Shown: positions 1,044-37,236 of the stretch, piece by piece
How the letters are laid out: the number at the start of each line of letters is the position of its first letter
Position numbering within the stretch: position 1 is the first letter of the stretch
Origin: a virus
DNA: 51,049 nucleotides
Strand: one strand, 5' to 3'
IMG/VR virus record: IMGVR_UViG_3300025162_000065
Span: 1-51,049 of that record
Made by a program: the position numbers and the translations under genes
The notes under the pieces: model-generated
Seen by the model: the letters and a program-made list of their open reading frames with translations, nothing else
Databases searched by the model: none
Told to the model about the DNA's origin: nothing

Positions 1044-1202
1044 ATGAAAATGAAAGAAGGAATAGATTGGATTTTAATGAATTTTCGTTGTCCAAAAGAA
1101 TTACATGATTATTTGAAAATAAAATCAACTGATAATTATTTATCAATGACAGATTATTTGATACAACTTATATTAAAGGATAAAAATAAAGAAATGAAAT
1201 GA
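1044..1202 (+). CDS. Small ribbon-helix-helix-like protein
   Basis: 52 residues. The pattern of a short strand (FRCPKELHDYLK), then a turn, then SMTDYLIQLIL matches the Arc/CopG strand-helix-helix size and layout, so it is likely a DNA-binding dimer. Its TGA overlaps the ATG of the downstream nuclease by four bases (ATGA), implying translational coupling. The upstream 22-base block shared with two other such cassettes is its plausible operator. RHH assignment is by pattern only. Confidence 0.55.
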   Translation: MKMKEGIDWILMNFRCPKELHDYLKIKSTDNYLSMTDYLIQLILKDKNKEMK

Positions 1203-2170: not shown

Positions 2171-2240
2171 GCTCGGTGGGAATCGAACCCACACAGCACT
2201 GATTAAGAGTCAGTTTCAATACCAATTATGATACGAACCC
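2168..2240 (-). tRNA. tRNA-Lys (CTT)
   Basis: Cloverleaf on the minus strand: acceptor GGGTTCG/CGAGCCT, anticodon stem ACTGA/TCAGT, loop CTCTTAA giving anticodon CTT, and T-loop TTCGATT. The discriminator is A and the 3' CCA is not encoded. The 3' end overlaps the stop codon of the plus-strand endonuclease gene. Confidence 0.85.
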
Positions 2241-2246
2241 AATTTT

Positions 2247-2321
2247 GTGACCCCGATGGGACTTGAACCCATAATTTTCTCATTAAAAGTGAGAAGCCTT
2301 ACCAATTTGGCCACGGAGTCA
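2247..2321 (-). tRNA. tRNA-Lys (TTT)
   Basis: Acceptor TGACTCC/GGGGTCA (one G-U), anticodon stem TCTCA/TGAGA with loop CTTTTAA (anticodon TTT), T-loop TTCAAGT. CCA is not encoded. It lies directly beside the Lys(CTT) gene, so both Lys codons are covered. Confidence 0.85.
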
Positions 2322-2325
2322 TCGG

Positions 2326-2394
2326 CAAGGAAGGCTGGGTTTGTCCAACATCACTCAGTTTGTCACCGAGCATTTTTCATTAAACTACTTCCTT
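2326..2394 (-). other. tRNA-like cloverleaf with non-canonical loops
   Basis: Four arms in tRNA order: perfect acceptor AAGGAAG/CTTCCTT, linker TA, D-stem GTTT/AAAT, anticodon-position stem CTCGG/CTGAG, and T-position stem GTTGG/CCAGC. The anticodon loop TGACAAA lacks U33, and the T-position loop ACAAAC lacks TTC. Length is 68-69 bases. It is either a decayed tRNA or a deliberate tRNA mimic. It sits between clear tRNAs. Confidence 0.4.
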
Positions 2395-2405
2395 ATTACG
2401 GCTTT

Positions 2406-2560
2406 TTGCCGTGATTATACCTGATAAATAAATGTTTTTCCGAAGATTCAAAGTCTCTGTCTAAGCTTTTCTGGCAATAAGGCGTGTTATTTACAACACT
2501 ACATTCATTTATTTGCGGAAATTCAGTATTCGAAACTGACTCAATTTGAGCTACACGCTT
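2406..2560 (-). other. Two possible degenerate tRNA-like structures
   Basis: 2480-2560: acceptor AAGCGTG/CACGCCT (one mismatch), TAGCTC D-arm start, perfect stem TCAGT/ACTGA around loop TTCGAAT (anticodon position CGA), short ATTT/AAAT arm, and no TTC loop. 2406-2477: acceptor TTGCC/GGCAA, loop CTTTGAA (TTG at the anticodon position), shortened D region. A hairpin ACGGC/GCCGT lies just outside, near 2398-2412. No protein gene is convincing here. Confidence 0.3.
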
Positions 2561-2600
2561 TCCAGGCGGTACTGACAACCTTATCAGTTAATTTTCCATG

Positions 2601-2689
2601 GCGGGAAATTTGGAATCGAACTAATGTATAGTTCTTGCTGTGATTATTCTTTTCAGAATAGTTCTCAACCGACTTGAGATTGTTTCCCG
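2601..2689 (-). tRNA. Atypical class II-sized tRNA, anticodon unclear
   Basis: Acceptor CGGGAAA/TTTCCCG is perfect, the D-arm is TCTC/GAGA, and the T-loop TTCGATT is canonical but its stem has two mismatches. The anticodon arm TATTC/GAATA leaves only six loop bases (TGAAAA), so the anticodon (GAA or TGA) cannot be fixed. Length of about 88 with a long variable region suggests Ser/Leu/Tyr class or a decayed gene. Confidence 0.4.
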
Positions 2690-2695
2690 TTTTTG

Positions 2696-2776
2696 TGTGG
2701 ATTGGCGGAATCGAACCGCCGTCCTTTCCTATCTCGGTGCTTCAAACCGATGCTAAACCGTCTCAGCTAAATCCAC
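2696..2776 (-). tRNA. tRNA with GAA anticodon and extended variable loop
   Basis: Acceptor GTGGATT/AATCCAC, T8-A9, D-stem beginning GCT, anticodon stem TCGGT/ACCGA with loop TTGAAGC (GAA, Phe codons), T-arm GGCGG/CCGCC with TTCGATT, discriminator A. The variable region is about 13 bases, which is unusual for a Phe tRNA. A standard Phe tRNA follows, so this one may be charged differently. Confidence 0.7.
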
Positions 2777-2783
2777 ATATTTG

Positions 2784-2858
2784 TGGAACGGGGTGGACTC
2801 GAACCACCATCCCTGGATTTTCAGTCCAGTGCGAACTGACCGTCTGCGCTACCGTTCC
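2784..2858 (-). tRNA. tRNA-Phe (GAA)
   Basis: Canonical class I tRNA: acceptor GGAACGG/CCGTTCC, anticodon stem CTGGA/TCCAG with loop CTGAAAA, five-base variable loop, T-loop TTCGAGT, discriminator A. Confidence 0.9.
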
Positions 2859-2867
2859 ATAATTTTT

Positions 2868-2942
2868 GGGCGAATAATCGGATTTGAACCGACCCTAAAA
2901 GAACCACAATCTATCGTGCTAACCACTAACACTATATCCGCC
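2868..2942 (-). tRNA. tRNA-His (GTG), copy 1
   Basis: Acceptor GGCGGAT/ATTCGCC, loop TTGTGGT (anticodon GTG), T-arm GTCGG with loop TTCAAAT, discriminator C as expected for His. The anticodon stem has one T-T mismatch. First of three His tRNAs in the cluster. Confidence 0.8.
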
Positions 2943-2952
2943 ATATTTTTGG

Positions 2953-3026
2953 GGTGTTAGGTCGGTTTCGATCCGACTACCTCTTGCTTCACAGGCAAGC
3001 ACTCTCCCTATTGAGCTACAAACACC
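2953..3026 (-). tRNA. tRNA-His (GTG), copy 2
   Basis: Anticodon stem CTTGC/GCAAG with loop CTGTGAA. Acceptor GTGTTTG/CTAACAC with one mismatch, discriminator C and a G encoded at the -1 position, the His identity pair. The T-loop is ATCGAAA instead of TTCGAAA. Confidence 0.85.
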
Positions 3027-3029
3027 ATA

Positions 3030-3839
3030 TTACCAATTCATTTTTCTACCTTTTTTCCATCCTTTTGATAGATAATCATTTAATTCATCTTTATTTATTC
3101 TTATACACTTTTTATCAGTTTCTAAAATAATCCAACATGTGCCAAATTGAGAATTTTTTTCACCTTTTTGTGTTATTGAATTTTTATTACCTATTTTTTT
3201 TTTAGTATCTTCTGAATGATTTTTACCTGTCCAATAACACATTAAATCTCCATTTTTATATCTCTCATCTTCCTTATCAATTAAATAAATTTTATCATTT
3301 TTATCTTTTACTAAAATTAAACCTTTGTTTATTGCTATTAATTCACCATTTTTTATTCTATTATCATTAATATTTACTTTATAGATATTGCCATCTTTAT
3401 CTCTATAATTGGCTTTATTTTTAATATGACTTACAAACTCATTATTATTTATATATTTTTCATCGTTCTTATCTACTTTTATCACCTTACCATCAAGTCC
3501 TCTTATCATTATTTTATTTTGAAAATAATGACGATAAATATCTAAATTGCTATTGATATGATACCAACTTTTACCACCTATTGTTAAATTATAATACTTT
3601 TTAGAATTAACAATTTCTTCGTTAACAAGTTCTTTTTCTTTTTCTAACATTTCTATTTCATTTTCACAGTAGTATAAAATTATTTTGTTGAAATTCTCTA
3701 TTCCATGTTTTTTTATAGCATTTTTTAAATATTTTCCAGAGCCCATATAATTATCATCTATATTTTCTGTCACATGACAACCAATATATTTTTTACCATT
3801 TATATTGTTTGTTATTTCATAAATTATATATTTTTTCAT
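3030..3839 (-). CDS. GIY-YIG homing endonuclease (Seg-like)
   Basis: 269 residues. The N-terminal GIY-YIG domain (about 1-95) shows KKYIIYEI then KKYIGCH, a conserved Arg/Lys-rich helix and EKELV with the catalytic Glu, ending in YYNLTIGG. The rest is repeated short strands (e.g. VDKNDEKYINN, LIDKEDERYKNGDLM), a likely DNA-binding region, with a NUMOD3-like segment (HSEDTKKKIG) near residue 210. It splits the tRNA cluster and has its own TATATATA promoter, typical of a mobile phage gene. It follows a His tRNA by three bases. Confidence 0.85.
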   Translation of the reverse strand: MKKYIIYEITNNINGKKYIGCHVTENIDDNYMGSGKYLKNAIKKHGIENFNKIILYYCENEIEMLEKEKELVNEEIVNSKKYYNLTIGGKSWYHINSNLDIYRHYFQNKIMIRGLDGKVIKVDKNDEKYINNNEFVSHIKNKANYRDKDGNIYKVNINDNRIKNGELIAINKGLILVKDKNDKIYLIDKEDERYKNGDLMCYWTGKNHSEDTKKKIGNKNSITQKGEKNSQFGTCWIILETDKKCIRINKDELNDYLSKGWKKGRKMNW

Positions 3840-3860
3840 CGTCTTTTTTTACTTATTATA

Positions 3861-3872
3861 GTATATATAAAA
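3861..3872 (-). promoter_or_regulatory. TTTTATATATA promoter of the GIY-YIG gene
   Basis: Minus-strand TTTTATATATAC, 21 bases before the ATG at 3839. Same box as at other isolated genes in this window. Confidence 0.5.
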
Positions 3873-3899
3873 TAAAAAGTTCGATATAAGTTCGATGCG

Positions 3900-3972
3900 G
3901 GTGTTGCAGGGAGTCGAACCCTATATAACTGAGTCACAATCAGTCGCATTTTTCCATTTATGCTAACAACAC
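3900..3972 (-). tRNA. tRNA-His (GTG), copy 3
   Basis: Acceptor GTGTTGT/GCAACAC, anticodon stem ACTGA/TCAGT with loop TTGTGAC (GTG), T-loop TTCGACT, discriminator C. Third His tRNA; its stems differ from the other two, so it is not a recent duplicate. Confidence 0.8.
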
Positions 3973-3974
3973 AG

Positions 3975-4060
3975 CGGAGGTTGTGGGGTTCGAACCCACG
4001 CAGCTTTTACACCCTATCAGTTTAGCAAACTGACCTCTTCACCAATTTGAGTAAACCTCC
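3975..4060 (-). tRNA. tRNA-Ser (GCT)
   Basis: Class II tRNA: acceptor GGAGGTT/AACCTCC, anticodon stem TCAGT/ACTGA with loop TTGCTAA (GCT), long variable region, T-loop TTCGAAC, discriminator G as in Ser tRNAs. Confidence 0.85.
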
Positions 4061-4073
4061 ATTTTATTTTTTG

Positions 4074-4160
4074 CGGAAGATAGAGATTACGATTCCCATA
4101 CCTCACAGAGTACCTACTGTTTTCGAAACAGTGCTTGGAACCAATCCAAGTTTATCTTCC
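4074..4160 (-). tRNA. tRNA-Ser (CGA)
   Basis: Class II tRNA: acceptor GGAAGAT/ATCTTCC, anticodon stem ACTGT/ACAGT with loop TTCGAAA (CGA), variable arm TACT/GGTA, discriminator G. The T-loop ATCGTAA departs from TTCGANN. Confidence 0.75.
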
Positions 4161-4330
4161 ATAAAAAATAGTGTTCTTTTCTGTAAGTATCCTTTCGGTC
4201 TCGACTACACCACCTACTGTGGGGTCTAAGCGAACTACTATTATAAGTCAGAATACAATTTGTGAATTTGAATCACTATAACAAGTTTCAAGTTTGTTTT
4301 TTTAACCTTTGTTTTTGCTGTTCGTATTCT
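4161..4330 (-). other. tRNA-like remnants between Ser tRNAs
   Basis: 4250-4330 has a perfect acceptor-type pair AGAATAC/GTATTCT, a loop CTTGAAA (TGA at the anticodon position) flanked by a near-paired ACAAA/CTTGT stem, and a GTGA/TCAC stem with loop TTCAAAT. Spacing is not canonical, so it looks like a decayed tRNA-Ser(TGA). 4161-4249 has outer pairing AATAGT/ACTATT and a CCAC/GTGG hairpin but no tRNA I can fold with confidence. No convincing ORF. Confidence 0.3.
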
Positions 4331-4333
4331 TTG

Positions 4334-4425
4334 CGGAAGCGGTGGGGCTCGAACCCACACATCACGTCTTAGGTGACCTAATAGTTTTCAAGACTATCCT
4401 CTTAAACCAATTTGAGTACGCTTCC
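4334..4425 (-). tRNA. tRNA-Ser (TGA), copy 1
   Basis: Class II: acceptor GGAAGCG/CGCTTCC, anticodon stem ATAGT/ACTAT with loop CTTGAAA (TGA), variable arm GTCAC/GTGAT, T-loop TTCGAGC, discriminator G. Confidence 0.88.
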
Positions 4426-4437
4426 AAATGAACCTTG

Positions 4438-4522
4438 CGGAAGTGACAAGAATCGAACTTGCACATCAAACAAATGACTTCACGGGTTTCAAAGCCGCTA
4501 ACCTCTCACAATGGGCACTTCC
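4438..4522 (-). tRNA. tRNA-Ser (TGA), copy 2
   Basis: Class II: acceptor GGAAGTG/CACTTCC, loop TTTGAAA (TGA) on a stem with a C-C mismatch next to the loop, variable arm TCA/TGA, T-arm GCAAG/CTTGT with TTCGATT, discriminator G. Second carrier of the same anticodon. Confidence 0.75.
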
Positions 4523-4528
4523 TTTTTG

Positions 4529-4610
4529 CACACTTGTAGGGACTCGAACCCTCAACTACGCTTACGCATTATCGGGTTGGAACCGACTAGTCACGCCAAT
4601 GAGCAGATGC
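4529..4610 (-). tRNA. Atypical tRNA with CCA anticodon
   Basis: Anticodon stem GTCGG/CCGAT with loop TTCCAAC (CCA, the Trp codon). The T-loop TTCGAGT is canonical. The acceptor pairing is imperfect and the variable region is about 16 bases, unlike a normal Trp tRNA. A regular Trp tRNA lies next to it. Possibly decayed or class II-like. Confidence 0.55.
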
Positions 4611-4627
4611 ATTTTTTATTCTTTTTG

Positions 4628-4699
4628 CAGGTATACTAGGATTCGAACCCAGATCAAAGCGTTTGGAGTGCCTTATGCTAACCGTTGCACCATATACCT
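4628..4699 (-). tRNA. tRNA-Trp (CCA)
   Basis: Acceptor AGGTATA/TATACCT, loop CTCCAAA (CCA) with one A-C pair at the stem top, five-base variable loop, T-loop TTCGAAT, discriminator G as in bacterial Trp tRNAs. Confidence 0.82.
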
Positions 4700-4705
4700 A
4701 TAATG

Positions 4706-4790
4706 TGCGCTCGGTGGGACTCGAACCCACGTACACTTTTGGATCCCACTTTAAAAGAGTGGTGCCTAGTTCCAACTCGGCCACGAACGC
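4706..4790 (-). tRNA. Class II-like tRNA with TTT anticodon
   Basis: Acceptor GCGTTCG/CGAGCGC, D-arm GCCGAG...GGC of the Leu/Ser kind, anticodon stem CCACT/AGTGG with loop CTTTTAA (TTT, Lys codons), 15-base variable region, T-arm GTGGG/CCCAC, discriminator A. The body looks Leu-like while the anticodon is Lys; a class I tRNA-Lys(TTT) also exists at 2247. Confidence 0.7.
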
Positions 4791-4855
4791 TACACATCAA
4801 TAAATCTTGTTGATTTATCGTTTTTCTTTATTATCCAATATGTCAATGAACTTTG

Positions 4856-4929
4856 TGAGGACTGTCGGATTCGAACCGACCTACTTCAGATCTTCAATCT
4901 GACGCTTGAACCTACTCAGCTATGACCCC
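4856..4929 (-). tRNA. tRNA-Phe (GAA), further copy
   Basis: D-arm TAGCTGAGTAGG, anticodon stem TCAGA/TCTGA with loop TTGAAGA (GAA), T-arm GTCGG/CCGAC with TTCGAAT, discriminator A. The acceptor GGGGTCA/AGTCCTC has two mismatches. First tRNA of the cluster in transcription order. Confidence 0.78.
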
Positions 4930-9307: not shown

Positions 9308-9958
9308 TTATTTATTTTTACAGTTATCAAAATGCCATCTTTTAGCACTTGTACTATCTATTAATTTTTCACAATGAGGACATTTTAATATGTCTCTTTT
9401 TTTATATTTTAATTTTTTTACACCTTTTAATTTTTTTGATATGTTTGGATTTTTATATCCTTTTATACCTTTATTCCAAGTTGGCATACCTTTCCTTTTT
9501 TCACACGGTCCTGTTTTTAATGCGCCAGGTAGCCATCCATCATTTAAAAAAGTTTGAAGATTTTCATTTTCAACTCTTTTATTTTTACCATCTTTATTGA
9601 TCCATCTTAAACTAATACCTGTCATATTTTTACTGTATTTATTTCTTTCGGCTAAATCAGGTCTTTTTCTACCAGTTGTTGTGGCACCACCTTCACCACC
9701 AAATGTCATATTAACTAATGTTCCATTTTTCATATCTCTTCTACCGTAAAAAGAAATTAATTCTATTTCTTTTTCGCATGCTTCTTTCCATAAAATATTA
9801 TCTAAAACAATTTCATATTCGTAATTGTGTAGATTCACATAGTCTTTCCAAAATTTACTTCTTTTATCTTTAGATTTTGCTCTTTTTTCTGTTTTTCCAA
9901 TTCCAACGTAAAAAACTTCACCATTATCAATTCTTTTATGTATATAAACTATTGCCAT
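9308..9958 (-). CDS. GIY-YIG homing endonuclease with zinc-finger tail
   Basis: 216 residues. GIY-YIG module at 1-90 (IVYIHKR, FYVGIGK, RSKFWKDY, catalytic-type EIELI, ending VNMTFGGEGG). The middle has MPTWNKGIKGYKNP, a NUMOD3-like DNA-binding turn. The C-terminus is a C2HC-type finger (CPHCEKLIDS...RWHFDNC). Own promoter box 4 bases from the ATG. It sits against the nucleotidase gene, the usual placement of T4-type seg genes. Confidence 0.85.
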   Translation of the reverse strand: MAIVYIHKRIDNGEVFYVGIGKTEKRAKSKDKRSKFWKDYVNLHNYEYEIVLDNILWKEACEKEIELISFYGRRDMKNGTLVNMTFGGEGGATTTGRKRPDLAERNKYSKNMTGISLRWINKDGKNKRVENENLQTFLNDGWLPGALKTGPCEKRKGMPTWNKGIKGYKNPNISKKLKGVKKLKYKKRDILKCPHCEKLIDSTSAKRWHFDNCKNK

Positions 9959-15897: not shown

Positions 15898-16102
15898 CTA
15901 TATACTCTATTGTTTTAATTACATTTATTTCCATTTCTTCATACCAATCATTAAGAGATTCATAATCATCATCATCAAATTTTGCATTCCAATTTTCTTT
16001 GATCCATTTGTGCATAGATTCCTCACTATCAAATATTCCTCTCGTCTCCCATTCATATGCACCTGCACTTTGTAAAACGAACTTTTCTTTTCCTTTTCTC
16101 AT
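15890..16102 (-). CDS. Hypothetical small acidic protein
   Basis: 70 residues, rich in Trp, Glu and Asp (MHKWIKENWNAKFDDDDYE). Overlaps the MazG-like gene by eight bases and the gene upstream by four. Unrecognised. Confidence 0.6.
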   Translation of the reverse strand: MRKGKEKFVLQSAGAYEWETRGIFDSEESMHKWIKENWNAKFDDDDYESLNDWYEEMEINVIKTIEYIDE

Positions 16103-16335
16103 AAAGATTCTTTTATTTTATTTAATTTGAATTTTCTCTCCCTTTTAATATCTCTTAATATATACTTAATATCTTCTTTATAATTTTCTAATCCTAATAC
16201 TTTTAAGTCAGAATCATCACATATTCTTACAATTGATAAATAATCTCCAACACTTTTTAATGAAATTATCAAATTAGATCCATCTACAAATATGAAAGGA
16301 TATTTTTTAGCTCTATTAAATTGTTCAGTTGTCAT
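16099..16335 (-). CDS. Hypothetical small protein
   Basis: 78 residues with a beta-like first half (PFIFVDGSNLIISLK) and a Lys/Arg-rich C-terminal helix. Overlaps the polymerase C-terminal gene and the next gene by four bases each (ATGA), so all are translated from one message. No family recognised. Confidence 0.6.
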   Translation of the reverse strand: MTTEQFNRAKKYPFIFVDGSNLIISLKSVGDYLSIVRICDDSDLKVLGLENYKEDIKYILRDIKRERKFKLNKIKESL

Positions 16336-17303
16336 AATGAAAATATTGAATTTAATACAGACAATCTTTTATTAATAGTTGGTAAACCAATTGGTTCCAA
16401 GAATCTATTAACAATTTGTAGTACTGTTAAGTCAAATTGCTCATCATAGTCAATTTTAACACCTTCTTTTTCACAAATTTCATAAGGGTGCATTGATCTC
16501 ATATAAGCAAAGACATTATTTTTAGGATGGTTACAATAATAATATTTAATTCTACCACCTCTGATGTTATCATACTTTGTTTTATACTCTGAATTCTTAT
16601 TTAATAAATAATTGTGTAATGCTGCGGCTTTAACACCAAAGTGAGCACCTTTAACTGTTACAACGTCAGTCACATCATCTATAACTTTTGTTGTGTAGTT
16701 AGAGCAACTTGTTGTCATAGAAATTTCTTCAATATCTGCCATCATAAACTGTTTTTTAAGATCCTTAACAAGTAATAATATTTTTCTAATGTTTAAGTTA
16801 TCAGGATTTGCAAATATATACTTTAAGAATTCATAAATATTTTCTCTAACAAATGGTGGAGTAGATGATTTAACAATCTCAACACCTTTTGGATAGAAGT
16901 AACTCAAGTTTTCATAGAAAATACCATCTTCATAAACCACATTGTTAATATAGTTCTTTTTCTGTATATGTAATGCAGAACGATTAATTGTTTCAAGTTC
17001 AAAGTCATGAATATTCTTAACACCAAATTTAGCGGCATATTCATCAAGATATTGTGTGAATAATTTTTTAACTATTACTCTATCAAGGTGTAAGATAAAA
17101 TCTAATGTATCACCTTTATAGCCAGCCGATTGTGCCATAGGTGTAAAAGAAATATAAAGAGAGTTATGAACTAATATATTATTGCCAATAAATGTATGTG
17201 TTTCGTCATCTACTTCAATATCATAAACATATTCATCTTCAAATTCTCCTATCATTTCACATGATTCTATTTCATCAAAATAGTATTCAATTTCATTTAT
17301 CAT
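16332..17303 (-). CDS. DNA polymerase B C-terminal part fused to C-terminal half of a split intein
   Basis: 323 residues. Residues 1-47 are an intein C-half: YDIEVDDETHTFIGN (block F) and LVHN (block G, His-Asn), followed by Ser48 as +1 residue. After splicing the join reads YGDTD-SLYISF, polymerase motif C. The rest is the T4 gp43-like palm and thumb: KKNYINNVVY and KSSTPPFVRE, and a C-terminal RLSVLNSIFSL resembling the gp43 clamp-binding tail. The start overlaps the endonuclease gene by 11 bases. Works only after trans-splicing with the product of 18519-19409. Confidence 0.9.
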   Translation of the reverse strand: MINEIEYYFDEIESCEMIGEFEDEYVYDIEVDDETHTFIGNNILVHNSLYISFTPMAQSAGYKGDTLDFILHLDRVIVKKLFTQYLDEYAAKFGVKNIHDFELETINRSALHIQKKNYINNVVYEDGIFYENLSYFYPKGVEIVKSSTPPFVRENIYEFLKYIFANPDNLNIRKILLLVKDLKKQFMMADIEEISMTTSCSNYTTKVIDDVTDVVTVKGAHFGVKAAALHNYLLNKNSEYKTKYDNIRGGRIKYYYCNHPKNNVFAYMRSMHPYEICEKEGVKIDYDEQFDLTVLQIVNRFLEPIGLPTINKRLSVLNSIFSL

Positions 17304-18495
17304 TTTTTAATTCTTTAATTTTTGTTAAAATATCTTGAATTGACATTCCTTTAGTTTCCCAAATAACAATGGTGTCAATATTAAAATCTTTTTTTAAGAG
17401 TTCTATTCTTTCTTTATCATCATCCCAAATTTGTTGTGCAGTTTTTTTATCTCCTTTAAATGAAAATGGAATATCATCTGCTTTATATATTTTAGGATTT
17501 CCGTGCCAAACATTACCGTAGTATTCTATACAAATTTTTATATCTTCTATATAATAATCTAAAAAAACATATCTACCATTTGATAACATTTTACCAAATT
17601 CAAATCCGTCCTTTTTATAATAATATGTTTTATACTTTTTACCTAAAATTAAATCTAATCTATCAAAAACTTCACCTGAAATTTTTGACGGTAAATAAAT
17701 ATTATTATGTATTTTATTTATATACAATTCTTCACCTTTTTCTTTGCCATATTTATTAATAAAATGATCTAATGTCACTTTCTTACTTTTACATAATGCT
17801 ATCCAATATTCTAATCCATATTTATTTATAACATATTCTTTTGATTTTGTTTCTTTCTGTTTATTGATATATTCGTCCCATATTTTGACTCCGTCTTCTT
17901 CACCATGCTTATCAATTAAATTTGATAATGTTATGGATCTACTTTTATTGTAATCATTAAAATTATCTATTGTCCAATTATGAGTTTTATTTTTATATTC
18001 AAAACTATTAGTGTATGACTGTTTAGAGACATAAGAATCCCATTTTTCTAATCCATCATTTTCTCCATATTTTTTAATAAAATTATCTTTTGTTACTCTA
18101 TAATTTTCATCTTTATATTTTTTGCCTATTTCTTTTGGTATATCAAATGCATATTCTGTAATATCATTCATTTTATTAAATACTCGTGATTTATTCATTT
18201 CTTGATATTCTGGAAATTCTTTTGTTAAACAATCTTCACATACACTTAAATAATAATCTTTATCATATATTGTTTTTGTTGATAAATAAGATTTTTTTAA
18301 TGGTACTAAATTATATTCATGGTTAACACTAAATGTTGAATCATAATAATATATTGGGCCATCACAATATTTACATCTTTTATGATTTTTAAAATTGTCT
18401 TTTAAAATTTTATCATAACTTTCTTTGGTTTTATTTTTAATAAACCAAGACACCCAAGTTTTATTGTATTGAGAATTATTTTTCCTTTTTGTCAT
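17293..18495 (-). CDS. Free-standing EDxHD/VSR-like homing endonuclease between intein halves
   Basis: 400 residues. N-terminal zinc motif CKYCDGP ... CEDC (about 38-98). The middle has repeated units of the type FIKKYGENDGLEKWDSYV / LIDKHGEEDGVKIWDEYI / FINKYGKEKGEELYINK (about 138-265), which are DNA-binding repeats. The C-terminus has KICIEYYGNVWHGNP, then W.DD..R..LL and TIVIWE, the EDxHD nuclease core related to VSR. Known fractured phage genes have this enzyme family sitting between split-intein halves. It starts 23 bases after the upstream polymerase gene. Confidence 0.88.
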   Translation of the reverse strand: MTKRKNNSQYNKTWVSWFIKNKTKESYDKILKDNFKNHKRCKYCDGPIYYYDSTFSVNHEYNLVPLKKSYLSTKTIYDKDYYLSVCEDCLTKEFPEYQEMNKSRVFNKMNDITEYAFDIPKEIGKKYKDENYRVTKDNFIKKYGENDGLEKWDSYVSKQSYTNSFEYKNKTHNWTIDNFNDYNKSRSITLSNLIDKHGEEDGVKIWDEYINKQKETKSKEYVINKYGLEYWIALCKSKKVTLDHFINKYGKEKGEELYINKIHNNIYLPSKISGEVFDRLDLILGKKYKTYYYKKDGFEFGKMLSNGRYVFLDYYIEDIKICIEYYGNVWHGNPKIYKADDIPFSFKGDKKTAQQIWDDDKERIELLKKDFNIDTIVIWETKGMSIQDILTKIKELKNDK

Positions 18496-18518
18496 ATGGT
18501 GATACTTTTATCTCTATT

Positions 18519-19409
18519 TCATTTTTTTCTAATAGATAATATTTTATCTGTTTTTAAAATTTCGGATGGTTTGAGTTCTAATTTTTTATCGTCTCTAAAT
18601 ACTATCATAGAGTGATCATTTGTAACTATAATTTCTTCACCTGATTTAGTTTTGAGTTTCCATTTTGATTTAGATACTTTATGTCTTATAATCCTTTTAA
18701 CAGTTGCATAATAAAGTTTTTTATTTTCATCCCAATTTAAAACTTTTTCTTCGCAATTAACAGATTCGTGACCTTTTAATGTTATACCAGCAGAACCAGT
18801 ATCTATATTTTTTTCATATAAATGTTCTATTGTAAAATCTCCATTATTTGTATTTATAATAGTATTAAAAACCACAGAATCTGTGTCACCATATATAATT
18901 ATTGGATTTTCCTTATCAATTGGCTGAACATTAGAAAAGTCATGAATATCTCTACGATATAAAATATTATAACCATCAAGTTCTTGTTTATCTTCTTTTA
19001 GATCATATTTCATTATATTTAATTTCGTTATTAGTTCTTCAAATGAAGGATGTGGATAATGAATACTTTGACCTTCTCTATTTAGAAGAAAATATTTACC
19101 ATCTTTTTCAGCAATATATTCAATACCAAGTTTTTGATGTGCTTTAACATCTAAATGCCATTGTGTGTAGAAGTATTTTTCAATTTTCTTTAACATATAC
19201 TGGATTACATCACGACCCATTGCTGTAATAGCATTTGCGATGTGTGAATTTGATAATACGAATTTTGGATGGGCAAACGCACCATATGTGCCATTAATAA
19301 CAAGTTTTAGAGCAAGTTGCATTGCTTTTGCTCTATCGTAATCTGCTTGTGTCTCATCTATTTTCTTTTTTAACTCTAATATTTTTTCTCTCTTCTCTGC
19401 AGCAGTCAT
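18519..19409 (-). CDS. DNA polymerase B middle part (motif B to motif C) fused to N-terminal half of a split intein
   Basis: 296 residues. Residues 1-177 are polymerase: QLALKLVINGTYGAF is motif B (K...N..YG) and IIYGDTD begins motif C. The intein N-half starts at Ser178 (18878) with SVVFNTIINTNNGDFTIEHL and has block B VTNDHSMIV (T263..H266). It ends at residue 296 with a normal stop. A stop codon lies immediately before the ATG, and the exonuclease domain and motif A are absent from this gene and the window, so the N-terminal polymerase subunit must be encoded elsewhere. Confidence 0.9.
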   Translation of the reverse strand: MTAAEKREKILELKKKIDETQADYDRAKAMQLALKLVINGTYGAFAHPKFVLSNSHIANAITAMGRDVIQYMLKKIEKYFYTQWHLDVKAHQKLGIEYIAEKDGKYFLLNREGQSIHYPHPSFEELITKLNIMKYDLKEDKQELDGYNILYRRDIHDFSNVQPIDKENPIIIYGDTDSVVFNTIINTNNGDFTIEHLYEKNIDTGSAGITLKGHESVNCEEKVLNWDENKKLYYATVKRIIRHKVSKSKWKLKTKSGEEIIVTNDHSMIVFRDDKKLELKPSEILKTDKILSIRKK

Positions 19410-19490
19410 CTATAAAATTTCTTTTCTTTTTATAGATTTTTATTTAGAATAGGTTTAAATAAAAAAGAATTTTTTTTAATATATATGATT

Positions 19491-19850
19491 ATGAAATATA
19501 TTAAAACATTTGAGGCTAAAAGTTTTAAAAAAGTGAACGATATTGTAAATAGAAATAATTTCGTTGATTATATTATGAAAGTTTATGGTTCAGATGGTAC
19601 TTGGGGTGAATTTTTTGATCGTAAATTAAATCAAAGCACTGTTGAAAAATATGTAGATAATTTTATTAAAAAAAGAGGCAAAGATTTTGATGGTGATTCT
19701 TTCGATAGAGAATTATATAGAGACTTTTTGTTCGTTAAATTGGGTATGTATGATATTAATGAAGTTGAACTTAACGTTAAAAGTTTTTTTACTGCATCTG
19801 AACTAAAAGATGCAAATGCGCTACATAAAGCGAATAAATATAATTTATGA
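19491..19850 (+). CDS. Array protein with shared terminal motifs
   Basis: 119 residues from the ATG at 19491, chosen because it gives MKYIKTFEAK, the N-terminal motif repeated in about 20 proteins here, and because it lies four bases after a TATATATG box. The C-terminus NKYNL is the matching terminal motif, although no gene overlaps it downstream on this strand. The middle is acidic/basic mixed with no recognised domain. It may be a virion-targeted protein if the N-terminus is a capsid-targeting peptide. Confidence 0.7.
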   Translation: MKYIKTFEAKSFKKVNDIVNRNNFVDYIMKVYGSDGTWGEFFDRKLNQSTVEKYVDNFIKKRGKDFDGDSFDRELYRDFLFVKLGMYDINEVELNVKSFFTASELKDANALHKANKYNL

Positions 19851-20691: not shown

Positions 20692-20964
20692 TTATATGTT
20701 ATATTTTTTATTTGTTAAAATTTGTTTTAATTCTTCTCTATTATTAGACCAATATCTAATATCATGTTTATAAAATATCTCATGTATTACTCTATTATCT
20801 GGTAGTCTTAATTTAACACTATAAAATTCAAATGTCAAATTGTATATTTCTCCAATAATTAGAATATTATTGTATTTTTTAGTTTTTAAATTTATTATAA
20901 CATAATCACCAATTTTTGGCTCACCATCATTTACACTTTCAAATAATTTGAATTTTGTTATCAT
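20692..20964 (-). CDS. Array protein, GDYV/SH3-like family
   Basis: 90 residues. N-terminus MITKFKLFE and C-terminus NKKYNI match the shared terminal motifs. The body has KIGDYVIINLKTKK and ELKQIL, like the three tandem proteins at 30012, 30335 and 30670: a small SH3-like barrel followed by a helix. The stop is followed after one base by the next gene. Own promoter box. Function unknown. Confidence 0.65.
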   Translation of the reverse strand: MITKFKLFESVNDGEPKIGDYVIINLKTKKYNNILIIGEIYNLTFEFYSVKLRLPDNRVIHEIFYKHDIRYWSNNREELKQILTNKKYNI

Positions 20965-22584: not shown

Positions 22585-22868
22585 TGGGTGTTATAAAAAC
22601 GAAAAAGCAATTTGAGTTGATGAAATCTGAGATGATTAAAAAGATCGATGATTTTATGAAAAATTTTAATGATTTTAGTCGTTCAATATCACCAGATGAC
22701 TGGAGATCAGTGGGAAAATATCATTCTGAGTTAAAAAAATTTAAAGAAGATATTCCATATTATAATCCAATAACAAAGAAAGATTTAGAACAAGAATGGG
22801 TTAGATATGAAGTTATGACTGAAGAAGAAAAAGAAATTTATAAAACATCAAAAAAAATGAACATATGA
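22584..22868 (+). CDS. Array member with C-terminal KKMNI
   Basis: 94 residues, helical, with acidic/basic pairs. Ends SKKMNI, the shared C-terminal motif, whose codons overlap the next start (ATATGA). The N-terminus MGVIKTKKQFELMK is a weak version of the shared opening. No domain recognised. Confidence 0.65.
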   Translation: MGVIKTKKQFELMKSEMIKKIDDFMKNFNDFSRSISPDDWRSVGKYHSELKKFKEDIPYYNPITKKDLEQEWVRYEVMTEEEKEIYKTSKKMNI

Positions 22869-23143
22869 AATTAAAGAAATTTGAAAAATATATAGTTGAC
22901 CTAGAAGGAGGTGATGATATTTCTTTGGAATATGCTAAATTGATTATATCAACGTTTATAGACAATTCAAATAAAGAATCATTAGAATCTGTATATGCTG
23001 ATATTATTAAAGGTGATGATTTAGAAGAGACACAAGAAGCTATGATACAAGAAAGTATAACTTTTTTACTTAAAAATTGGTATATAGCCTCCAAAAGTAT
23101 TAGAAAAGTTGTAGAAATAGATAAAGATAAATTTAATATATGA
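22865..23143 (+). CDS. Array protein
   Basis: 92 residues, opening MKLKKFEKYIVD and ending KDKFNI. The middle is an acidic helical segment (KLIISTFIDN, ESLESVYADIIKGDDLEE). Four-base overlaps on both sides. Function unknown. Confidence 0.68.
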   Translation: MKLKKFEKYIVDLEGGDDISLEYAKLIISTFIDNSNKESLESVYADIIKGDDLEETQEAMIQESITFLLKNWYIASKSIRKVVEIDKDKFNI

Positions 23144-27846: not shown

Positions 27847-28784
27847 TAAAAAGATTTGAAAATTTTATGTCAGATACTCAAATTAAGAATAAGTTTATAA
27901 CTTGTATTTATTCTAATCTACACGGAACACAATTTGGTGGAAGAAATGATAGAGAAGAACATTATAAATATAGTCTATTGTCATTATTAAAGATGACTGA
28001 TGCTGATTTTGTGTGTTATACATCAAGTTTAGAATATGAAAATCTATGTGATTTTTTTTATAAGAAAAATAATGTTAATGAGAATCAATTAAAGATCAAA
28101 ATATTTGATTTAGAGAATAATGATTTCAAAGATTTGATAAATAAATATAAAGATATAAATGATATAAAAAAATCACAAAGATGCTTTGAAATACAATATA
28201 TGAAGTTCATCTGGCCTACTTTAGAAGATATGACATATGATTATTATTTCTGGATTGATGCTGGATTAAGTTTTGATGGTTTAATTCCAAAAAAACATCT
28301 AAATACTGATAATAATAATTCAATTGGCTTTAATTCACCATTATTTAACAATAATTTCTTAAAAAACTTAATAAAAAGGTGTGATGATAAATGTATAGTT
28401 ATAACTAAGGAAAATTCTAAGTTTTTCTATGCAAATACAGTAGATCCTAAACACTATAAAAGTTATGATTCATCAAGGCATGTTGTTGCTGGTTTATTTG
28501 GTGGAAAAAGAGAAATAATGAATGAAATTATTAAAATATTTAGGCAATATATAGATAAGATAACAAATGAAGATAAGACTTTATATTATGAAGAAGCAAT
28601 TATGTCATTAATGAATTATAATAGCCCTGAATTATTTGTTAGTTTGGATTTTGACACTTGGTATCATGAAGATACTGTTTCATATCTAAATAGAATTAAA
28701 CAACATAGTAAATTTGATAATAATTTACTTGATCAGTTAAAAAATAGTAAGAGTTTTCATCAAATAATAGAAGAATTACAATGA
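27843..28784 (+). CDS. HtrL/YibB-type glycosyltransferase-like protein
   Basis: 313 residues, opening MIKRFENFM. Features: FITCIYSNLHGTQFGGRNDR, YKYSLLSLLKMTDADFVCYTS, QYMKFIWPTLEDM, YYFWIDAGLSFDG (the D.G metal-site type motif), HVVAGLFGGKREIM, and EEAIMSLMNY. The set matches the HtrL/YibB-like family, thought to adopt a GT-A glycosyltransferase fold. The substrate is unknown. Embedded in the array with four-base overlaps. Confidence 0.68.
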   Translation: MIKRFENFMSDTQIKNKFITCIYSNLHGTQFGGRNDREEHYKYSLLSLLKMTDADFVCYTSSLEYENLCDFFYKKNNVNENQLKIKIFDLENNDFKDLINKYKDINDIKKSQRCFEIQYMKFIWPTLEDMTYDYYFWIDAGLSFDGLIPKKHLNTDNNNSIGFNSPLFNNNFLKNLIKRCDDKCIVITKENSKFFYANTVDPKHYKSYDSSRHVVAGLFGGKREIMNEIIKIFRQYIDKITNEDKTLYYEEAIMSLMNYNSPELFVSLDFDTWYHEDTVSYLNRIKQHSKFDNNLLDQLKNSKSFHQIIEELQ

Positions 28785-29032
28785 TAAAAACATTTGAAAG
28801 TTGGTTAAGAAAAGATCCTCCAAAATTTAAAAAGGGAGATGTTGTATATGCTATTAATATAGATGGAACAAGTCTTAAAAAAGACACACCTTATATTGTG
28901 GATATTGTAGGGACCGAGAATCTTGGCGACCGATATTTGATTACTATTACATCAGGAATTATACCTAGACCATATAATGATAGCAGATTTATATCAAAAT
29001 TAGAATATGATTCAAATAAATTCAACATATGA
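28781..29032 (+). CDS. Array protein, SH3-like
   Basis: 83 residues, opening MIKTFESWLRKD and ending DSNKFNI. The middle FKKGDVVYAINIDGTSLKKDTPYIV is a small SH3-like barrel (K-G-D-x-V). Overlaps both neighbours by four bases. Confidence 0.65.
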   Translation: MIKTFESWLRKDPPKFKKGDVVYAINIDGTSLKKDTPYIVDIVGTENLGDRYLITITSGIIPRPYNDSRFISKLEYDSNKFNI

Positions 29033-30015
29033 AATATATTAAAACATACGAGTATAGACAATTAGCTGACAAAATATATTTTAATACTGATAAATTAAAT
29101 CAGAATGATAGAAATATTATATATGATAGAATAACTCAAGGTGATAATACAACTAAAATAATATCAGATATGTATTTTAGACATAAAGATGATTGGAATA
29201 TAAAAGATGTTATAAAAAATTTAAAAGATATTCATAACCAGTTACTTAATTATAATAAAAATGTCATTCCAATTAAAGATTTTGATATGTTAAACAAAGA
29301 TGATAATGATTATTATTATAGTTTTATTAATAGAGGAAAAATTTTAGATAGACTTAAAGAATTACCATCTGTTGCAATTCGTAACATGAAAGAAGATATT
29401 AGAAAGCCTAGAGATAGTAAAGAACTTGATGATTATAGACATAGTATTGAATATTTTTCAGCACAATATTCTCAATTGTATAATCGTGATGAAAAATTTA
29501 GAAAAAAAATACATGACAAAATGTTTAAGTCTAATATAACATTAGAAGATTTATTAAGATTTGCACATCAGAAAGAAAATTTATTGGGTGGCGTTGAATA
29601 TAGTAAAGATGATGTTATTAAGATGGTAGATGATTCTTATGTAGATATGACTATTATTTATGATGAAAATGATGTTCTTGTAGTAAAAGTTGAGTCCGCA
29701 GAAGCAATAAAAAATATAGGCTGTAATTCATTTTGGTGCTTTACTTATGGACAGGATAATTATAGAAGTTGGAGTAATTTTTGTTATCATGGAATGGTGT
29801 ATGTTATTATAAATTTCAAATTACCTTCAGATGATCCAGAATTTATGTATATACTTATTAAACCATTAGAAAAACAAAGTTTTTATAAAAAAGAAGAAAA
29901 TGATTATAAAATTCCATTGTTTAATATGGCTAATGAAAATTATTTTGACCCATATCCAATTTTAACTGATTTGGTTGGTAAAAAGAATATTAAAAAAATA
30001 TTTACTTTTGAATGA
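29029..30015 (+). CDS. Array protein with WCFTYG motif
   Basis: 328 residues, opening MKYIKTYEYR. The N-terminal 200 residues are helical. The C-terminal third has VVKVESAEAIKNIGCNSFWC, FTYGQDNYRSW, HGMVYVIINFKLP, a strand-rich segment with two close Cys that looks like a conserved enzymatic or binding module of large phages; I cannot name it. Ends IFTFE, without the KKFNI motif. Confidence 0.62.
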   Translation: MKYIKTYEYRQLADKIYFNTDKLNQNDRNIIYDRITQGDNTTKIISDMYFRHKDDWNIKDVIKNLKDIHNQLLNYNKNVIPIKDFDMLNKDDNDYYYSFINRGKILDRLKELPSVAIRNMKEDIRKPRDSKELDDYRHSIEYFSAQYSQLYNRDEKFRKKIHDKMFKSNITLEDLLRFAHQKENLLGGVEYSKDDVIKMVDDSYVDMTIIYDENDVLVVKVESAEAIKNIGCNSFWCFTYGQDNYRSWSNFCYHGMVYVIINFKLPSDDPEFMYILIKPLEKQSFYKKEENDYKIPLFNMANENYFDPYPILTDLVGKKNIKKIFTFE

Positions 30016-30338
30016 AGTATATAAAAACATACGAAAATTTAGAAATTGAACCAAAAGTTGGAGATTATGTCATATGTGATGATTCTAGAGCCAAAGATCA
30101 TATTATATTGAGAGATTTTATAAATAACAATATAGGTAGATTAAATCATATTGATAAAGAAGATCCTATGCCATATGATATAGAGTATAAAAATATACCA
30201 TATGAGTTATCAAGTTTTTATTTCGGATTTAATGGTAGAAAGAATAATAGAATAATGAATAGAACAGAAATAATATATTTTTCTAAAAGTAAAGAAGATG
30301 TAGAACAATATCTACAAAATAAAAAATTCAATTTATGA
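30012..30338 (+). CDS. Array protein, GDYV family (tandem copy 1)
   Basis: 108 residues: MKYIKTYENLEIEPKVGDYV opening, then FINNNIG, YDIEYKNIPYEL, KEDVEQYL, ending NKKFNL. Aligns over its length with the next two proteins. A small SH3-like domain followed by a helix is predicted. Four-base overlaps both sides. Confidence 0.68.
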   Translation: MKYIKTYENLEIEPKVGDYVICDDSRAKDHIILRDFINNNIGRLNHIDKEDPMPYDIEYKNIPYELSSFYFGFNGRKNNRIMNRTEIIYFSKSKEDVEQYLQNKKFNL

Positions 30339-30673
30339 GATATCTAAAATATTTTGAATCTTTATATAAACCAAAAGTTGGGGATTATGTTGTTGCTGAT
30401 AAACTATATTTAGCGGGTCATTTTAAAAATTTTGAAGATTTTGTTGAAAATAATGTTGGTATAGTAACATATATTAGTAAAGATCCAATATTCTACCAAA
30501 TTGAATATTATGATGTACCACAAGATTTAAAAAGTAAATTTTCATATAATGGAAATGAATATAAAACTAATATTTATGATATAGATGATTCAAGGAAAAA
30601 AATAAGATTAGCAACACCAGAAGAAATAGAAGAATTTGAAGCAAAAAGAAGAATGAATAAATTTAATCTATGA
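30335..30673 (+). CDS. Array protein, GDYV family (tandem copy 2)
   Basis: 112 residues: MRYLKYFESLYKPKVGDYVV, FVENNVGIV, YQIEYYDVPQDL, TPEEIEEF, ending MNKFNL. Paralogue of its two neighbours; identity is low except at the two ends and the GDYV, NN(V/I)G and YxIEYxxxPxxL positions. Confidence 0.68.
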   Translation: MRYLKYFESLYKPKVGDYVVADKLYLAGHFKNFEDFVENNVGIVTYISKDPIFYQIEYYDVPQDLKSKFSYNGNEYKTNIYDIDDSRKKIRLATPEEIEEFEAKRRMNKFNL

Positions 30674-31017
30674 AATATTTAAAAACATACGAAAATTTTG
30701 ATTTTGAATTAGCTGTAGGTGATTATGTTCTTGTAAATTATGATGAAGATGATATGGAACAAGAACTTAAAGATTATCTAAAAAACAATATTGCACAAGT
30801 TAGATATGGTAACAATTTAGATGATGAATGGATAACTGTAAATTATAAAGATACACCAAGTGATTATTTAATAAAACATTATTTTACAAATAGAGATAAT
30901 TATGAAATAAAATATAATTTGTATCCAAGAGTTATTAATCAATATTATATAGTTGCAGCTTCAAAAGATAAAGAAAACTTAAAACAAATAGTATTAAATA
31001 GAAAATATAACTTATGA
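30670..31017 (+). CDS. Array protein, GDYV family (tandem copy 3)
   Basis: 115 residues: MKYLKTYENFDFELAVGDYVL, YLKNNIAQV, ITVNYKDTPSDYL, ASKDKENLKQIV, ending NRKYNL. Third tandem copy. Related also to the minus-strand protein at 20692. Confidence 0.68.
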   Translation: MKYLKTYENFDFELAVGDYVLVNYDEDDMEQELKDYLKNNIAQVRYGNNLDDEWITVNYKDTPSDYLIKHYFTNRDNYEIKYNLYPRVINQYYIVAASKDKENLKQIVLNRKYNL

Positions 31018-31280
31018 AAATAAAAAAATTTAACGAAAAATTAGAACCACTAGATTCAATATTTAAAATATTTGCTAGTGTAGAAGAAAATATACCACCA
31101 TTGGAGTATTCTGGTAGTTATAAAACTTATAATAAAGCATATAAAGAAATTTTAGATTGGATAGATAATGGATTACGTGATAAGAAAGTTTATGATGCAT
31201 ATATTGTAAAAGTAACAAAAGAAATACTTAATAATGACGACATTAAAGCAAGAATAGATTCAAAAAAATATAACATATGA
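31014..31280 (+). CDS. Array protein
   Basis: 88 residues, opening MKIKKFNEKLEP and ending DSKKYNI; helical middle (YKTYNKAYKEILDWIDNG, VKVTKEILNNDDI). Four-base overlaps. Similar in size and layout to the protein at 24950. Confidence 0.66.
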   Translation: MKIKKFNEKLEPLDSIFKIFASVEENIPPLEYSGSYKTYNKAYKEILDWIDNGLRDKKVYDAYIVKVTKEILNNDDIKARIDSKKYNI

Positions 31281-32810: not shown

Positions 32811-32987
32811 ATGAAAAAGAAAATAACAAAAAGTAAAGTGGTTTTTTCCTTTGAACCTGAAATTATTCAATTTTTAAGTGAAAATTTTGAAAATAAATCA
32901 AGATATGTTGAATATCTTATTTATAAAGATATGAAAGATAATAATTTAATAAAAAATGATATAATCTTCTATGATAATTACAGATAA
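32811..32987 (+). CDS. Ribbon-helix-helix-like protein
   Basis: 58 residues: basic arm MKKKITKSK, strand VVFSFEPEI, helix IQFLSENF, then KSRYVEYLIYKDM. Overlaps the following endonuclease gene by 17 bases. Same position as the RHH genes at 1044 and 42434, directly before a zinc/NUMOD-type nuclease. Confidence 0.55.
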   Translation: MKKKITKSKVVFSFEPEIIQFLSENFENKSRYVEYLIYKDMKDNNLIKNDIIFYDNYR

Positions 32988-33744
32988 AAACGAATTATTG
33001 AAATTATGTGAAGGCTCTCATAAGAAAATTTTGGTTGAATGTGATGTTTGTCATAAACAGAGTTATAAACCATATCGTCAATATTTAATTTCTTGTAAAA
33101 ATGGAAATTTTTATTGCTGTTCACCTACTTGTGCGCAAGTAAAAAACAGAAAGACTACTTTTGAAAAATATGGGCTTGAAAATGTTTTTCAGTCAAATGA
33201 AATTAAAGATAAAATAGTAGAAACAAATAACGAAAAATATGGAGTTGATTACCCAAGTCAATCAGAGGAAATACGAAAGAAAATAGTTCAGTCAAATATA
33301 AATAATTTTGGTGTAGATAATCCAGGCAAATGTGAAAAATTTAAAGATCAAATAAAGAAGACTTGTTTTGAAAGATATGGTGTTGATAGTTTTAATAAAT
33401 CAGAAATTTGTAAAAATATTTTAATACAAAAGGGATTAAAAGTTCCAGATGAATTTAAATCGGAGTTTGAGATATATCAATATGAGGTTAGAAAATTAAC
33501 CAGATCAAAAAAGAAAAAAGTTTTTGAAGAATGGAGTGGTTACGATTATTATGATAATGAATATATAAAAAATAATTATATATTTAGTCATATTAGTCCT
33601 TTGTATCCTACAATAGATCATAAAACATCAATATTTTTTGGATTTAATAATAAAATTCCAATAGAAGAAATTGCAGATATAAACAATTTGTGTGTGACAA
33701 AAAGAACTATAAACTCTTCAAAAGGTATAAAATGTGAGAATTAA
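32971..33744 (+). CDS. HNH homing endonuclease with zinc and repeat modules
   Basis: 257 residues. Zinc segment CDVCHKQ ... CCSPTC (about 23-54), repeats KYGLENVFQSNEIKDKI / KYGVDYPSQSEEIRKKI / NFGVDNPGKCEKF, then DYYDNEYIKNNY and the HNH-type core YPTIDHKTSIFFGF ... INNLCVTKRTINSSK. Close in design to the protein at 41573 and, in its front half, to that at 1199. Mobile element protein. Confidence 0.82.
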   Translation: MIITDKNELLKLCEGSHKKILVECDVCHKQSYKPYRQYLISCKNGNFYCCSPTCAQVKNRKTTFEKYGLENVFQSNEIKDKIVETNNEKYGVDYPSQSEEIRKKIVQSNINNFGVDNPGKCEKFKDQIKKTCFERYGVDSFNKSEICKNILIQKGLKVPDEFKSEFEIYQYEVRKLTRSKKKKVFEEWSGYDYYDNEYIKNNYIFSHISPLYPTIDHKTSIFFGFNNKIPIEEIADINNLCVTKRTINSSKGIKCEN

Positions 33745-36921: not shown

Positions 36922-37236
36922 ATGAAAATACAAAGATTTACTGAAGCTGTAGGTGATGATTTTACATATAAAGGAAAAATTATAATAAATTTTGATATAC
37001 TTAAATCAAAAATTGAAAGTTATTCTACAATATTCAGTGATAAAGAAGTTAAAAAACTTGGAATTGATGGAATATTACAAAAATTTATATTTGTAAGTTT
37101 AGATCCTTCATTTCTTCCTGATAATTTTAATAGTTTTAAAGAGTTTGAAAAAACTATTGATTATGATCTTTATGATAAAGATGGAAGCCTTATTGGTAAA
37201 GATGCTTTTGATACATCAAATAAATTTAATATATGA
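36922..37236 (+). CDS. Array-type protein
   Basis: 104 residues opening MKIQRFTEAVGDD and ending TSNKFNI; alpha/beta middle (KIIINFDILKSKIESY). Begins four bases after the amidoligase-like gene and overlaps the next by four bases. A member of the shared-termini set outside the main array. Confidence 0.66.
   Translation: MKIQRFTEAVGDDFTYKGKIIINFDILKSKIESYSTIFSDKEVKKLGIDGILQKFIFVSLDPSFLPDNFNSFKEFEKTIDYDLYDKDGSLIGKDAFDTSNKFNI

What the first reader, a model, noticed from the sequence alone, without database searches (positions are those of the whole stretch)
16332..19409. DNA polymerase split by a trans-splicing intein with a free-standing homing endonuclease between the halves
The upstream gene ends its polymerase part exactly at YGDTD and continues with an intein N-half beginning at Ser178 (block B VTNDHS). 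A complete EDxHD/VSR-like endonuclease gene follows. The downstream gene opens with an intein C-half ending LVHN and then SLYISF. Joining the exteins restores YGDTD-SLYISF, polymerase motif C, so the catalytic Asp residues are assembled only after protein trans-splicing. This is the fractured-gene arrangement known from environmental phage sequences, here in motif C of a gp43-like polymerase.
Basis: partly seen in the sequence, partly recalled or inferred. Interest (0 to 1): 0.9.

Follow-up and report, generated by a model that had tools for sequence, protein, structure and literature searches.

The report
Phage polymerase split by mobile intein
In this phage the gene for the second half of its DNA polymerase is cut in two inside the active-site motif by a self-splicing protein element that carries its own DNA-cutting gene, so the enzyme should work only after the two proteins splice together; the arrangement is already known from a few other large phages, but the relatives found here record how such elements spread and split.

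Summary
Gene 1 (18519-19409) is 177 aa of family-B polymerase ending YGDTD plus a 119-aa intein N-half. Gene 2 (17293-18495) is a free-standing VSR-like homing endonuclease. Gene 3 (16332-17303) is a 47-aa intein C-half ending LVHN plus 276 aa of polymerase starting SLYISF. The main omission is that gene 1 begins at motif B: the exonuclease/motif A part (gp43A) is not in the window and in relatives is a separate, often distant gene, so the polymerase is a three-gene product. Both motif C aspartates sit in the N-extein, so splicing completes the motif but does not bring the two Asp together. The kind is known (Tenacibaculum phage PTm1, Pseudomonas phages MIJ3/PA5oct, the Aes123 PolB1 split intein). 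New here is the comparison: of 99 loci, 76 are empty, 3 carry cis mini-inteins and 20 split inteins (13 with this endonuclease type, 3 with another, 4 with none). The intein state changes at least 18 times on the polymerase tree, and the window's cassette shows a recent-transfer signature against its nearest relative. Splicing activity is inferred. Verdict: new member of a known kind.

The parts
18879..19409 (-). N-extein: first 177 aa of gp43B (motif B KLVINGTYG, motif C ending YGDTD)
   Evidence: Pfam DNA_pol_B 2.9e-12; collinear with first 177 aa of the uninterrupted 453-aa gp43B of L012/L017
18522..18878 (-). Intein N-half (119 aa): Ser1, block B TNDH (TxxH)
   Evidence: Pfam Intein_splicing 1.6e-9 for the gene; 9hth Aes123 PolB1 2.1e-9; Ser1, Thr86 and His89 invariant in A3
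17293..18495 (-). Free-standing homing endonuclease (400 aa); repeated helical units about 111-237, VSR-like nuclease domain about residues 268-400 (window about 17296-17694)
   Evidence: Predicted model pLDDT 83.5; VSR 1cw0 Foldseek prob 1.00, VIA-align Z 9.8, I-Bth0305I 3r3p Z 8.2; homologous to the VSR endonuclease gene of PTm1
17163..17303 (-). Intein C-half (47 aa): block F VYDIEVDDETHTFI, block G NNILVHN; start overlaps the endonuclease end by 11 nt
   Evidence: Pfam Intein_splicing 7e-5, profile 116-155 of 155; PolB16 intein 8cpo 4.7e-6
16332..17162 (-). C-extein: last 276 aa of gp43B, starts SLYISF
   Evidence: phrog_262 DNA polymerase 9.8e-30, profile 581-851 of 856; 86-89% identical to the uninterrupted alleles L012, L013, L017

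Best explanation
A jumbo-phage family-B DNA polymerase (T4 gp43 type) that in this lineage is normally made from two unlinked genes, gp43A (exonuclease + motif A) and gp43B (motifs B and C to the end), has had gp43B interrupted in motif C (YGDTD^S) by a class 1 split intein. The N-half and C-half are translated from separate ORFs; they associate, Ser1 and the +1 Ser of the C-extein act as nucleophiles, the final Asn cyclises, and the exteins are joined to restore YGDTDSLYISF; spliced gp43B then assembles non-covalently with gp43A. The VSR-like endonuclease gene between the halves is predicted to cut intein-free gp43B alleles at or near the insertion site in co-infected cells, so that repair copies the whole IntN-endonuclease-IntC cassette. 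Shown by sequence: parts, junction, empty alleles, recent-transfer signature, repeated gain/loss. Inferred: splicing chemistry, cleavage activity, assembly with gp43A.
For: Intein and polymerase profile hits on both genes. Splice residues conserved: Ser1, TxxH, LVHN|S. Empty alleles with the exact uninterrupted junction in L012, L013, L014, L017, L018, L195-L197; gp43B is one 453-456 aa ORF in L012, L014 and L017. gp43A found separate and distant from gp43B in relatives: G011 about 96 kb, G024 about 86 kb, G029 about 151 kb. Homologous cis mini-intein L040 folds as a Hint domain, best PDB match Aes123 PolB1 split intein, E 2.2e-15. Endonuclease matches VSR and I-Bth0305I folds. Transfer signature: window versus L008 fourfold-site differences 11/43 N-extein, 8/124 cassette, 20/81 C-extein (Fisher 0.0016 and 0.0003); none of three other pairs shows it; DNA identity jumps from 77% to 98% at the insertion site. 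Extein tree: at least 18 changes between empty and occupied, 12 for this endonuclease-bearing state, forced by well-supported branches. Intein more similar than extein in 268 of 276 pairs.
Against: No splicing or cleavage was measured. The window record is a fragment and gp43A is not in it. The IntC Pfam match alone is below Pfam's cut-off. Higher intein than extein conservation could in part reflect constraint, though the synonymous-site result against L008 is not explained that way. The Foldseek E-value for the nuclease is modest (7.9e-3) and VIA-align gives similar Z to some other nuclease-like folds. Some empty calls rest on partial tblastn hits.
Confidence: 0.92

Rival explanations
1. The intein halves no longer splice; the pieces of polymerase assemble non-covalently, as the gp43A/gp43B pieces of Aeromonas phage 25 do, or the gene is dead.
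For: Non-covalent reassembly of split gp43 is documented for phage 25 (Petrov et al. 2010, as reviewed in PMC2988022). Splicing was not tested here.
Against: Ser1, TxxH, His-Asn and +1 Ser are kept and the halves have no internal stops. A break inside motif C with 119 and 47 extra residues at the catalytic loop would be hard to accommodate (inference). No intact copy in the records of PTm1, Lak-C1 and LR756500.
Confidence: 0.05
2. A self-splicing RNA intron removes the endonuclease ORF, joining IntN to IntC in the message so that the intein works in cis.
For: Group I introns with endonucleases are common in phage polymerase genes (general knowledge).
Against: Only 23 nt lie between the IntN stop and the endonuclease start, and the endonuclease and IntC ORFs overlap by 11 nt; no Rfam match even at E 1 in 15900-19600; IntN ends with its own stop and IntC begins with its own ATG in nearly all split loci; four split loci have no endonuclease at all.
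Confidence: 0.02
3. A cis intein with nested endonuclease that looks split only because of sequencing or assembly errors.
For: Metagenomic contig.
Against: The same three-ORF layout with separate starts occurs in 13 non-redundant loci with this endonuclease type, PTm1 included; all three frames between the halves hold stops.
Confidence: 0.01

Closest known systems
Tenacibaculum phage PTm1/PTm5 PolB (PTm1 ORF236-241, AP019524; PTm5 AP019525)
   Same: gp43A piece, motif-B piece with IntN, VSR endonuclease, IntC with C-terminal piece; record calls it intein-containing split DNA polymerase precursor; same family of endonuclease and intein
   Different: Extein only about 28% identical; gp43A sits in the same gene cluster rather than far away; endonuclease shorter (261 versus 400 aa)
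Pseudomonas phages MIJ3 and PA5oct PolB split intein
   Same: Split intein at YGDTD^S with a separate endonuclease gene between the halves (MIJ3: PMC6892783; PA5oct)
   Different: Endonuclease is described as HNH or Hef-like, not VSR-like; polymerase N-part is not separately split in PA5oct (one 803-aa gene)
Aes123 PolB1 and CP21 PolB1 split inteins (T4-like Aeromonas and Campylobacter phages)
   Same: Natural split inteins in phage PolB; Aes123 shown to trans-splice (PMC11923092); its structure 9hth is the best PDB match for IntN and for the homologous cis intein
   Different: Window IntN has one Cys (those are cysteine-less, PMC12707363); sequence identity is low
Fractured genes of Dassa et al. 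2009 (gp41, NrdJ and others)
   Same: Split intein halves flanking a free-standing EDxHD/VSR-type endonuclease
   Different: Host gene here is PolB; the original paper was not held, so the comparison rests on citations and general knowledge
Split gp43A/gp43B of Aeromonas phages 25 and 44RR
   Same: gp43 made from two genes; in phage 25 the two co-purify as an active enzyme (PMC2988022)
   Different: No intein at that break; here a second break, inside gp43B, is added

Membership tests
Class 1 split intein | Separate ORFs with IntN (blocks A, B) fused to N-extein and IntC (blocks F, G) fused to C-extein | tested here: met
Class 1 split intein | Nucleophile at position 1, TxxH in block B, terminal Asn after His, Ser/Thr/Cys at +1 | tested here: met
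   Ser1, T86-N-D-H89, LVHN|S
Class 1 split intein | Trans-splicing activity | not testable with these tools
   needs expression; a relative (Aes123 PolB1) is active according to PMC11923092
Class 1 split intein | Hint (horseshoe) fold | tested here: met
   homologous cis version L040 modelled, best match 9hth E 2.2e-15; the window halves themselves were not folded together
Fractured gene (split intein with endonuclease gene between halves) | Independent endonuclease ORF lying exactly between IntN and IntC ORFs | tested here: met
Fractured gene (split intein with endonuclease gene between halves) | Homologous uninterrupted host genes at the same site | tested here: met
   76 empty loci of 99; eight read at DNA level
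EDxHD/VSR-like homing endonuclease | VSR-like catalytic fold | tested here: met
   1cw0 prob 1.00, E 7.9e-3; Z 9.8 VSR, Z 8.2 I-Bth0305I
EDxHD/VSR-like homing endonuclease | Family catalytic residues in place | tested here: inconclusive
   D313, E324, H331 and D360 are invariant across 13 homologues, but they were not superposed on the I-Bth0305I active site
EDxHD/VSR-like homing endonuclease | Cleaves the intein-free allele | not testable with these tools
   indirect only: transfer signature
T4 gp43-type family B polymerase | Exonuclease domain and motifs A, B, C | tested here: inconclusive
   motifs B and C present; exonuclease and motif A absent from this fragment but on a separate gp43A gene in relatives

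The most novel reading that the evidence does not exclude
The IntN-endonuclease-IntC cassette is one mobile element with an exchangeable endonuclease slot: it homes as a unit between diverged jumbo phages, converts between contiguous and split form when an endonuclease enters or leaves, and makes the phage's only replicative family-B polymerase depend on three separately translated genes at two distant loci. Sister inteins that differ in state (L035 split with endonuclease versus L038 contiguous; L010 versus L011 with different endonuclease families) would be natural snapshots of split-intein birth and endonuclease exchange.
Probability: 0.6. Interest if true: 0.65.

Novelty: new member of a known kind. 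Interest (0 to 1): 0.5.

Why it matters
How contiguous inteins become split, and whether split inteins are still mobile, is an open question with few natural intermediates. This site gives empty, contiguous, split with endonuclease A, split with endonuclease B and split-without-endonuclease states of one intein family at one codon, including close sister pairs, plus a synonymous-site signature of recent transfer. That makes the order of events testable and supplies new natural Ser-type split inteins for protein ligation. It also implies a replicative polymerase that needs one splicing and one non-covalent assembly step.

Tried and rejected
RNA intron: no Rfam match at E 1 in the region and no room. 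Readthrough or frameshift joining the halves: stops in all frames between them, and the IntN/IntC frame relation differs among relatives. Intact second polymerase: none in the 51-kb window; none in the PTm1, Lak-C1 and LR756500 records; none seen in the 344- and 348-kb relatives G002/G003, which however also show no gp43A and so are probably fragments. Endonuclease by Pfam: no hit; identified by predicted structure instead. Intein tree: only 4 of 21 branches well supported, so I use only its supported sister pairs, not its deep order. PTm1 has a very long branch in the extein tree and its place there is not used. Dassa et al. 2009 is not held, so its definition comes from citations and general knowledge. 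EDxHD residue identity with I-Bth0305I was not verified by superposition.

Full report
WHAT IS THERE. The window is a 51,049-base virus record, treated as a fragment. On the minus strand, three consecutive ORFs read: gene 1, 18519-19409 (296 aa); gene 2, 17293-18495 (400 aa); gene 3, 16332-17303 (323 aa). Gene 1 holds 177 aa of family B polymerase from just before motif B (KLVINGTYG) to motif C (IIIYGDTD), then 119 aa of intein N-half. Gene 3 holds 47 aa of intein C-half ending NNILVHN, then 276 aa of polymerase starting SLYISF. Profile support: DNA_pol_B 2.9e-12, Intein_splicing 1.6e-9 (gene 1) and 7e-5 (gene 3; covers profile 116-155 of 155, under Pfam's cut-off); PHROG polymerase 9.8e-30 on gene 3; the solved Aes123 PolB1 split intein on gene 1, 2.1e-9 (named), and PolB16 intein on gene 3, 4.7e-6.

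A THIRD PIECE IS MISSING. Gene 1 has no exonuclease domain and no motif A, and nothing else in the window matches that part. In intein-free relatives gp43B is one ORF of 453-456 aa with the same start, MTAAEKRE.. in L012 and L017 and MTPDEKRQ.. in L014, so gene 1 starts where gp43B naturally starts. gp43A (exonuclease, motif A FDFSSLYPTTMREF) is a separate gene: about 96 kb from gp43B in G011, which carries the split intein; about 86 kb away on the other strand in G024 and about 151 kb away in G029, both intein-free. In the records of PTm1, Lak-C1 and LR756500 one gp43A and one interrupted gp43B are the only family-B polymerase pieces over threshold. Split gp43A/gp43B enzymes are known to be active (phage 25, PMC2988022).

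THE JUNCTION. Eight empty alleles read at DNA level (L012, L013, L014, L017, L018, L195-L197) encode ...YGDTD|SLY[IV]SF... with nothing between. Splicing residues are kept: Ser1, TNDH, LVHN and +1 Ser across the homologues aligned. A homologous contiguous intein (L040) was modelled with the window halves in the alignment; its best PDB match is the Aes123 PolB1 split intein (E 2.2e-15, TM to target 0.83).

THE ENDONUCLEASE. Gene 2 has no Pfam match. The model (pLDDT 83.5) shows repeated helical units and a C-terminal nuclease domain; best matches are VSR (Foldseek prob 1.00, E 7.9e-3; VIA-align Z 9.8) and the EDxHD homing endonuclease I-Bth0305I (Z 8.2). D313, E324, H331 and D360 are invariant in 13 homologues. 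PTm1's gene at the same place is annotated VSR endonuclease.

HOW IT MOVES. Between the window and its nearest relative L008, fourfold-degenerate sites differ at 11/43 in the N-extein and 20/81 in the C-extein but 8/124 in the cassette (Fisher 0.0016 and 0.0003); pairs with L010, L011 and L023 show no such difference. DNA identity rises from 77% to 98% at the insertion site. The cassette is therefore more recently shared by these two phages than the gene around it. Across 99 non-redundant loci: 76 empty, 13 split with this endonuclease family, 3 split with another endonuclease family, 4 split with none, 3 contiguous. On a 100-row extein tree the empty/occupied label changes at least 18 times and the endonuclease-A split state 12 times, forced by well-supported branches. 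The intein is more similar than the extein in 268 of 276 pairs. Two supported sister pairs in the intein tree differ in state: L010/L011 (different endonuclease families, 99/97) and L035/L038 (split with endonuclease versus contiguous, 100/97); in L038 the linker ...KVLTIHEYV-TYEIEEID... is continuous where L035 has a stop, the endonuclease, then MTYEIEEID....

WHAT IS KNOWN. The same arrangement is described for Pseudomonas phage MIJ3 (PMC6892783) and visible in PA5oct at the identical YGDTD|S site, deposited for Tenacibaculum phage PTm1, and phage PolB split inteins Aes123 and CP21 are studied for protein ligation (PMC11923092, PMC12707363). The finding is thus a new member of a known kind. 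The comparative series, the recent-transfer signature and the three-gene polymerase are the parts I did not find described in the papers searched, which cover open-licence PubMed Central only.

SHOWN AND INFERRED. Shown: parts, coordinates, exact junction, empty alleles, state diversity, transfer signature. Inferred: that the halves splice, that the endonuclease cuts the empty allele, and that spliced gp43B assembles with gp43A in this phage.

Noticed in passing
window 19485-19850, 20692-20964, 22865-23143, 28781-29032, 30012-30338, 30335-30673, 30670-31017, 31014-31280, 36922-37236, 39896-40207: Many small, otherwise different ORFs begin with a motif like MKYLKTFE and end in K(K)YNL/KFNI; similar ends occur in relatives L010 and L011. 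Both ends look conserved while the middle varies; purpose unknown, no chance estimate made.
   Followed up: partly
L218:4900-5800: A related split intein without endonuclease sits two codons upstream, YGD^TDS instead of YGDTD^S, with +1 Thr: a second insertion register inside motif C.
   Followed up: partly
L030:8274-8960, L031:4097-4650, L033:8277-8829: Split intein halves with only 76-210 nt between the ORFs and no endonuclease: possible end state after endonuclease loss.
   Followed up: partly
L029:9893-10984, L032:10004-11071, L041:9877-10935: The C-terminal polymerase piece in this clade has an insert of roughly 70-80 aa shortly after motif C.
   Followed up: no
window 1199-2170, 3030-3839, 9308-9958, 32971-33744, 41573-42433, 47654-48628, 49952-50836: Some six or seven further endonuclease-like genes (DUF7487, GIY-YIG/NUMOD3, DUF723 types) in 51 kb (9308-9958 by eye only, no profile hit); the 49952 type resembles the alternative endonuclease found between the intein halves in L010/L024.
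   Followed up: partly
window 2167-4929: Cluster of 12 tRNA genes including repeated Lys, Phe and His tRNAs, with a GIY-YIG-like endonuclease gene inside.
   Followed up: no
L010:4580-5965, L012:5837-7435, L015:4186-5787, L024:6164-7750, L025:6310-7962: Other large endonuclease-like ORFs lie just upstream of gp43B in many relatives, intein-bearing and intein-free.
   Followed up: no
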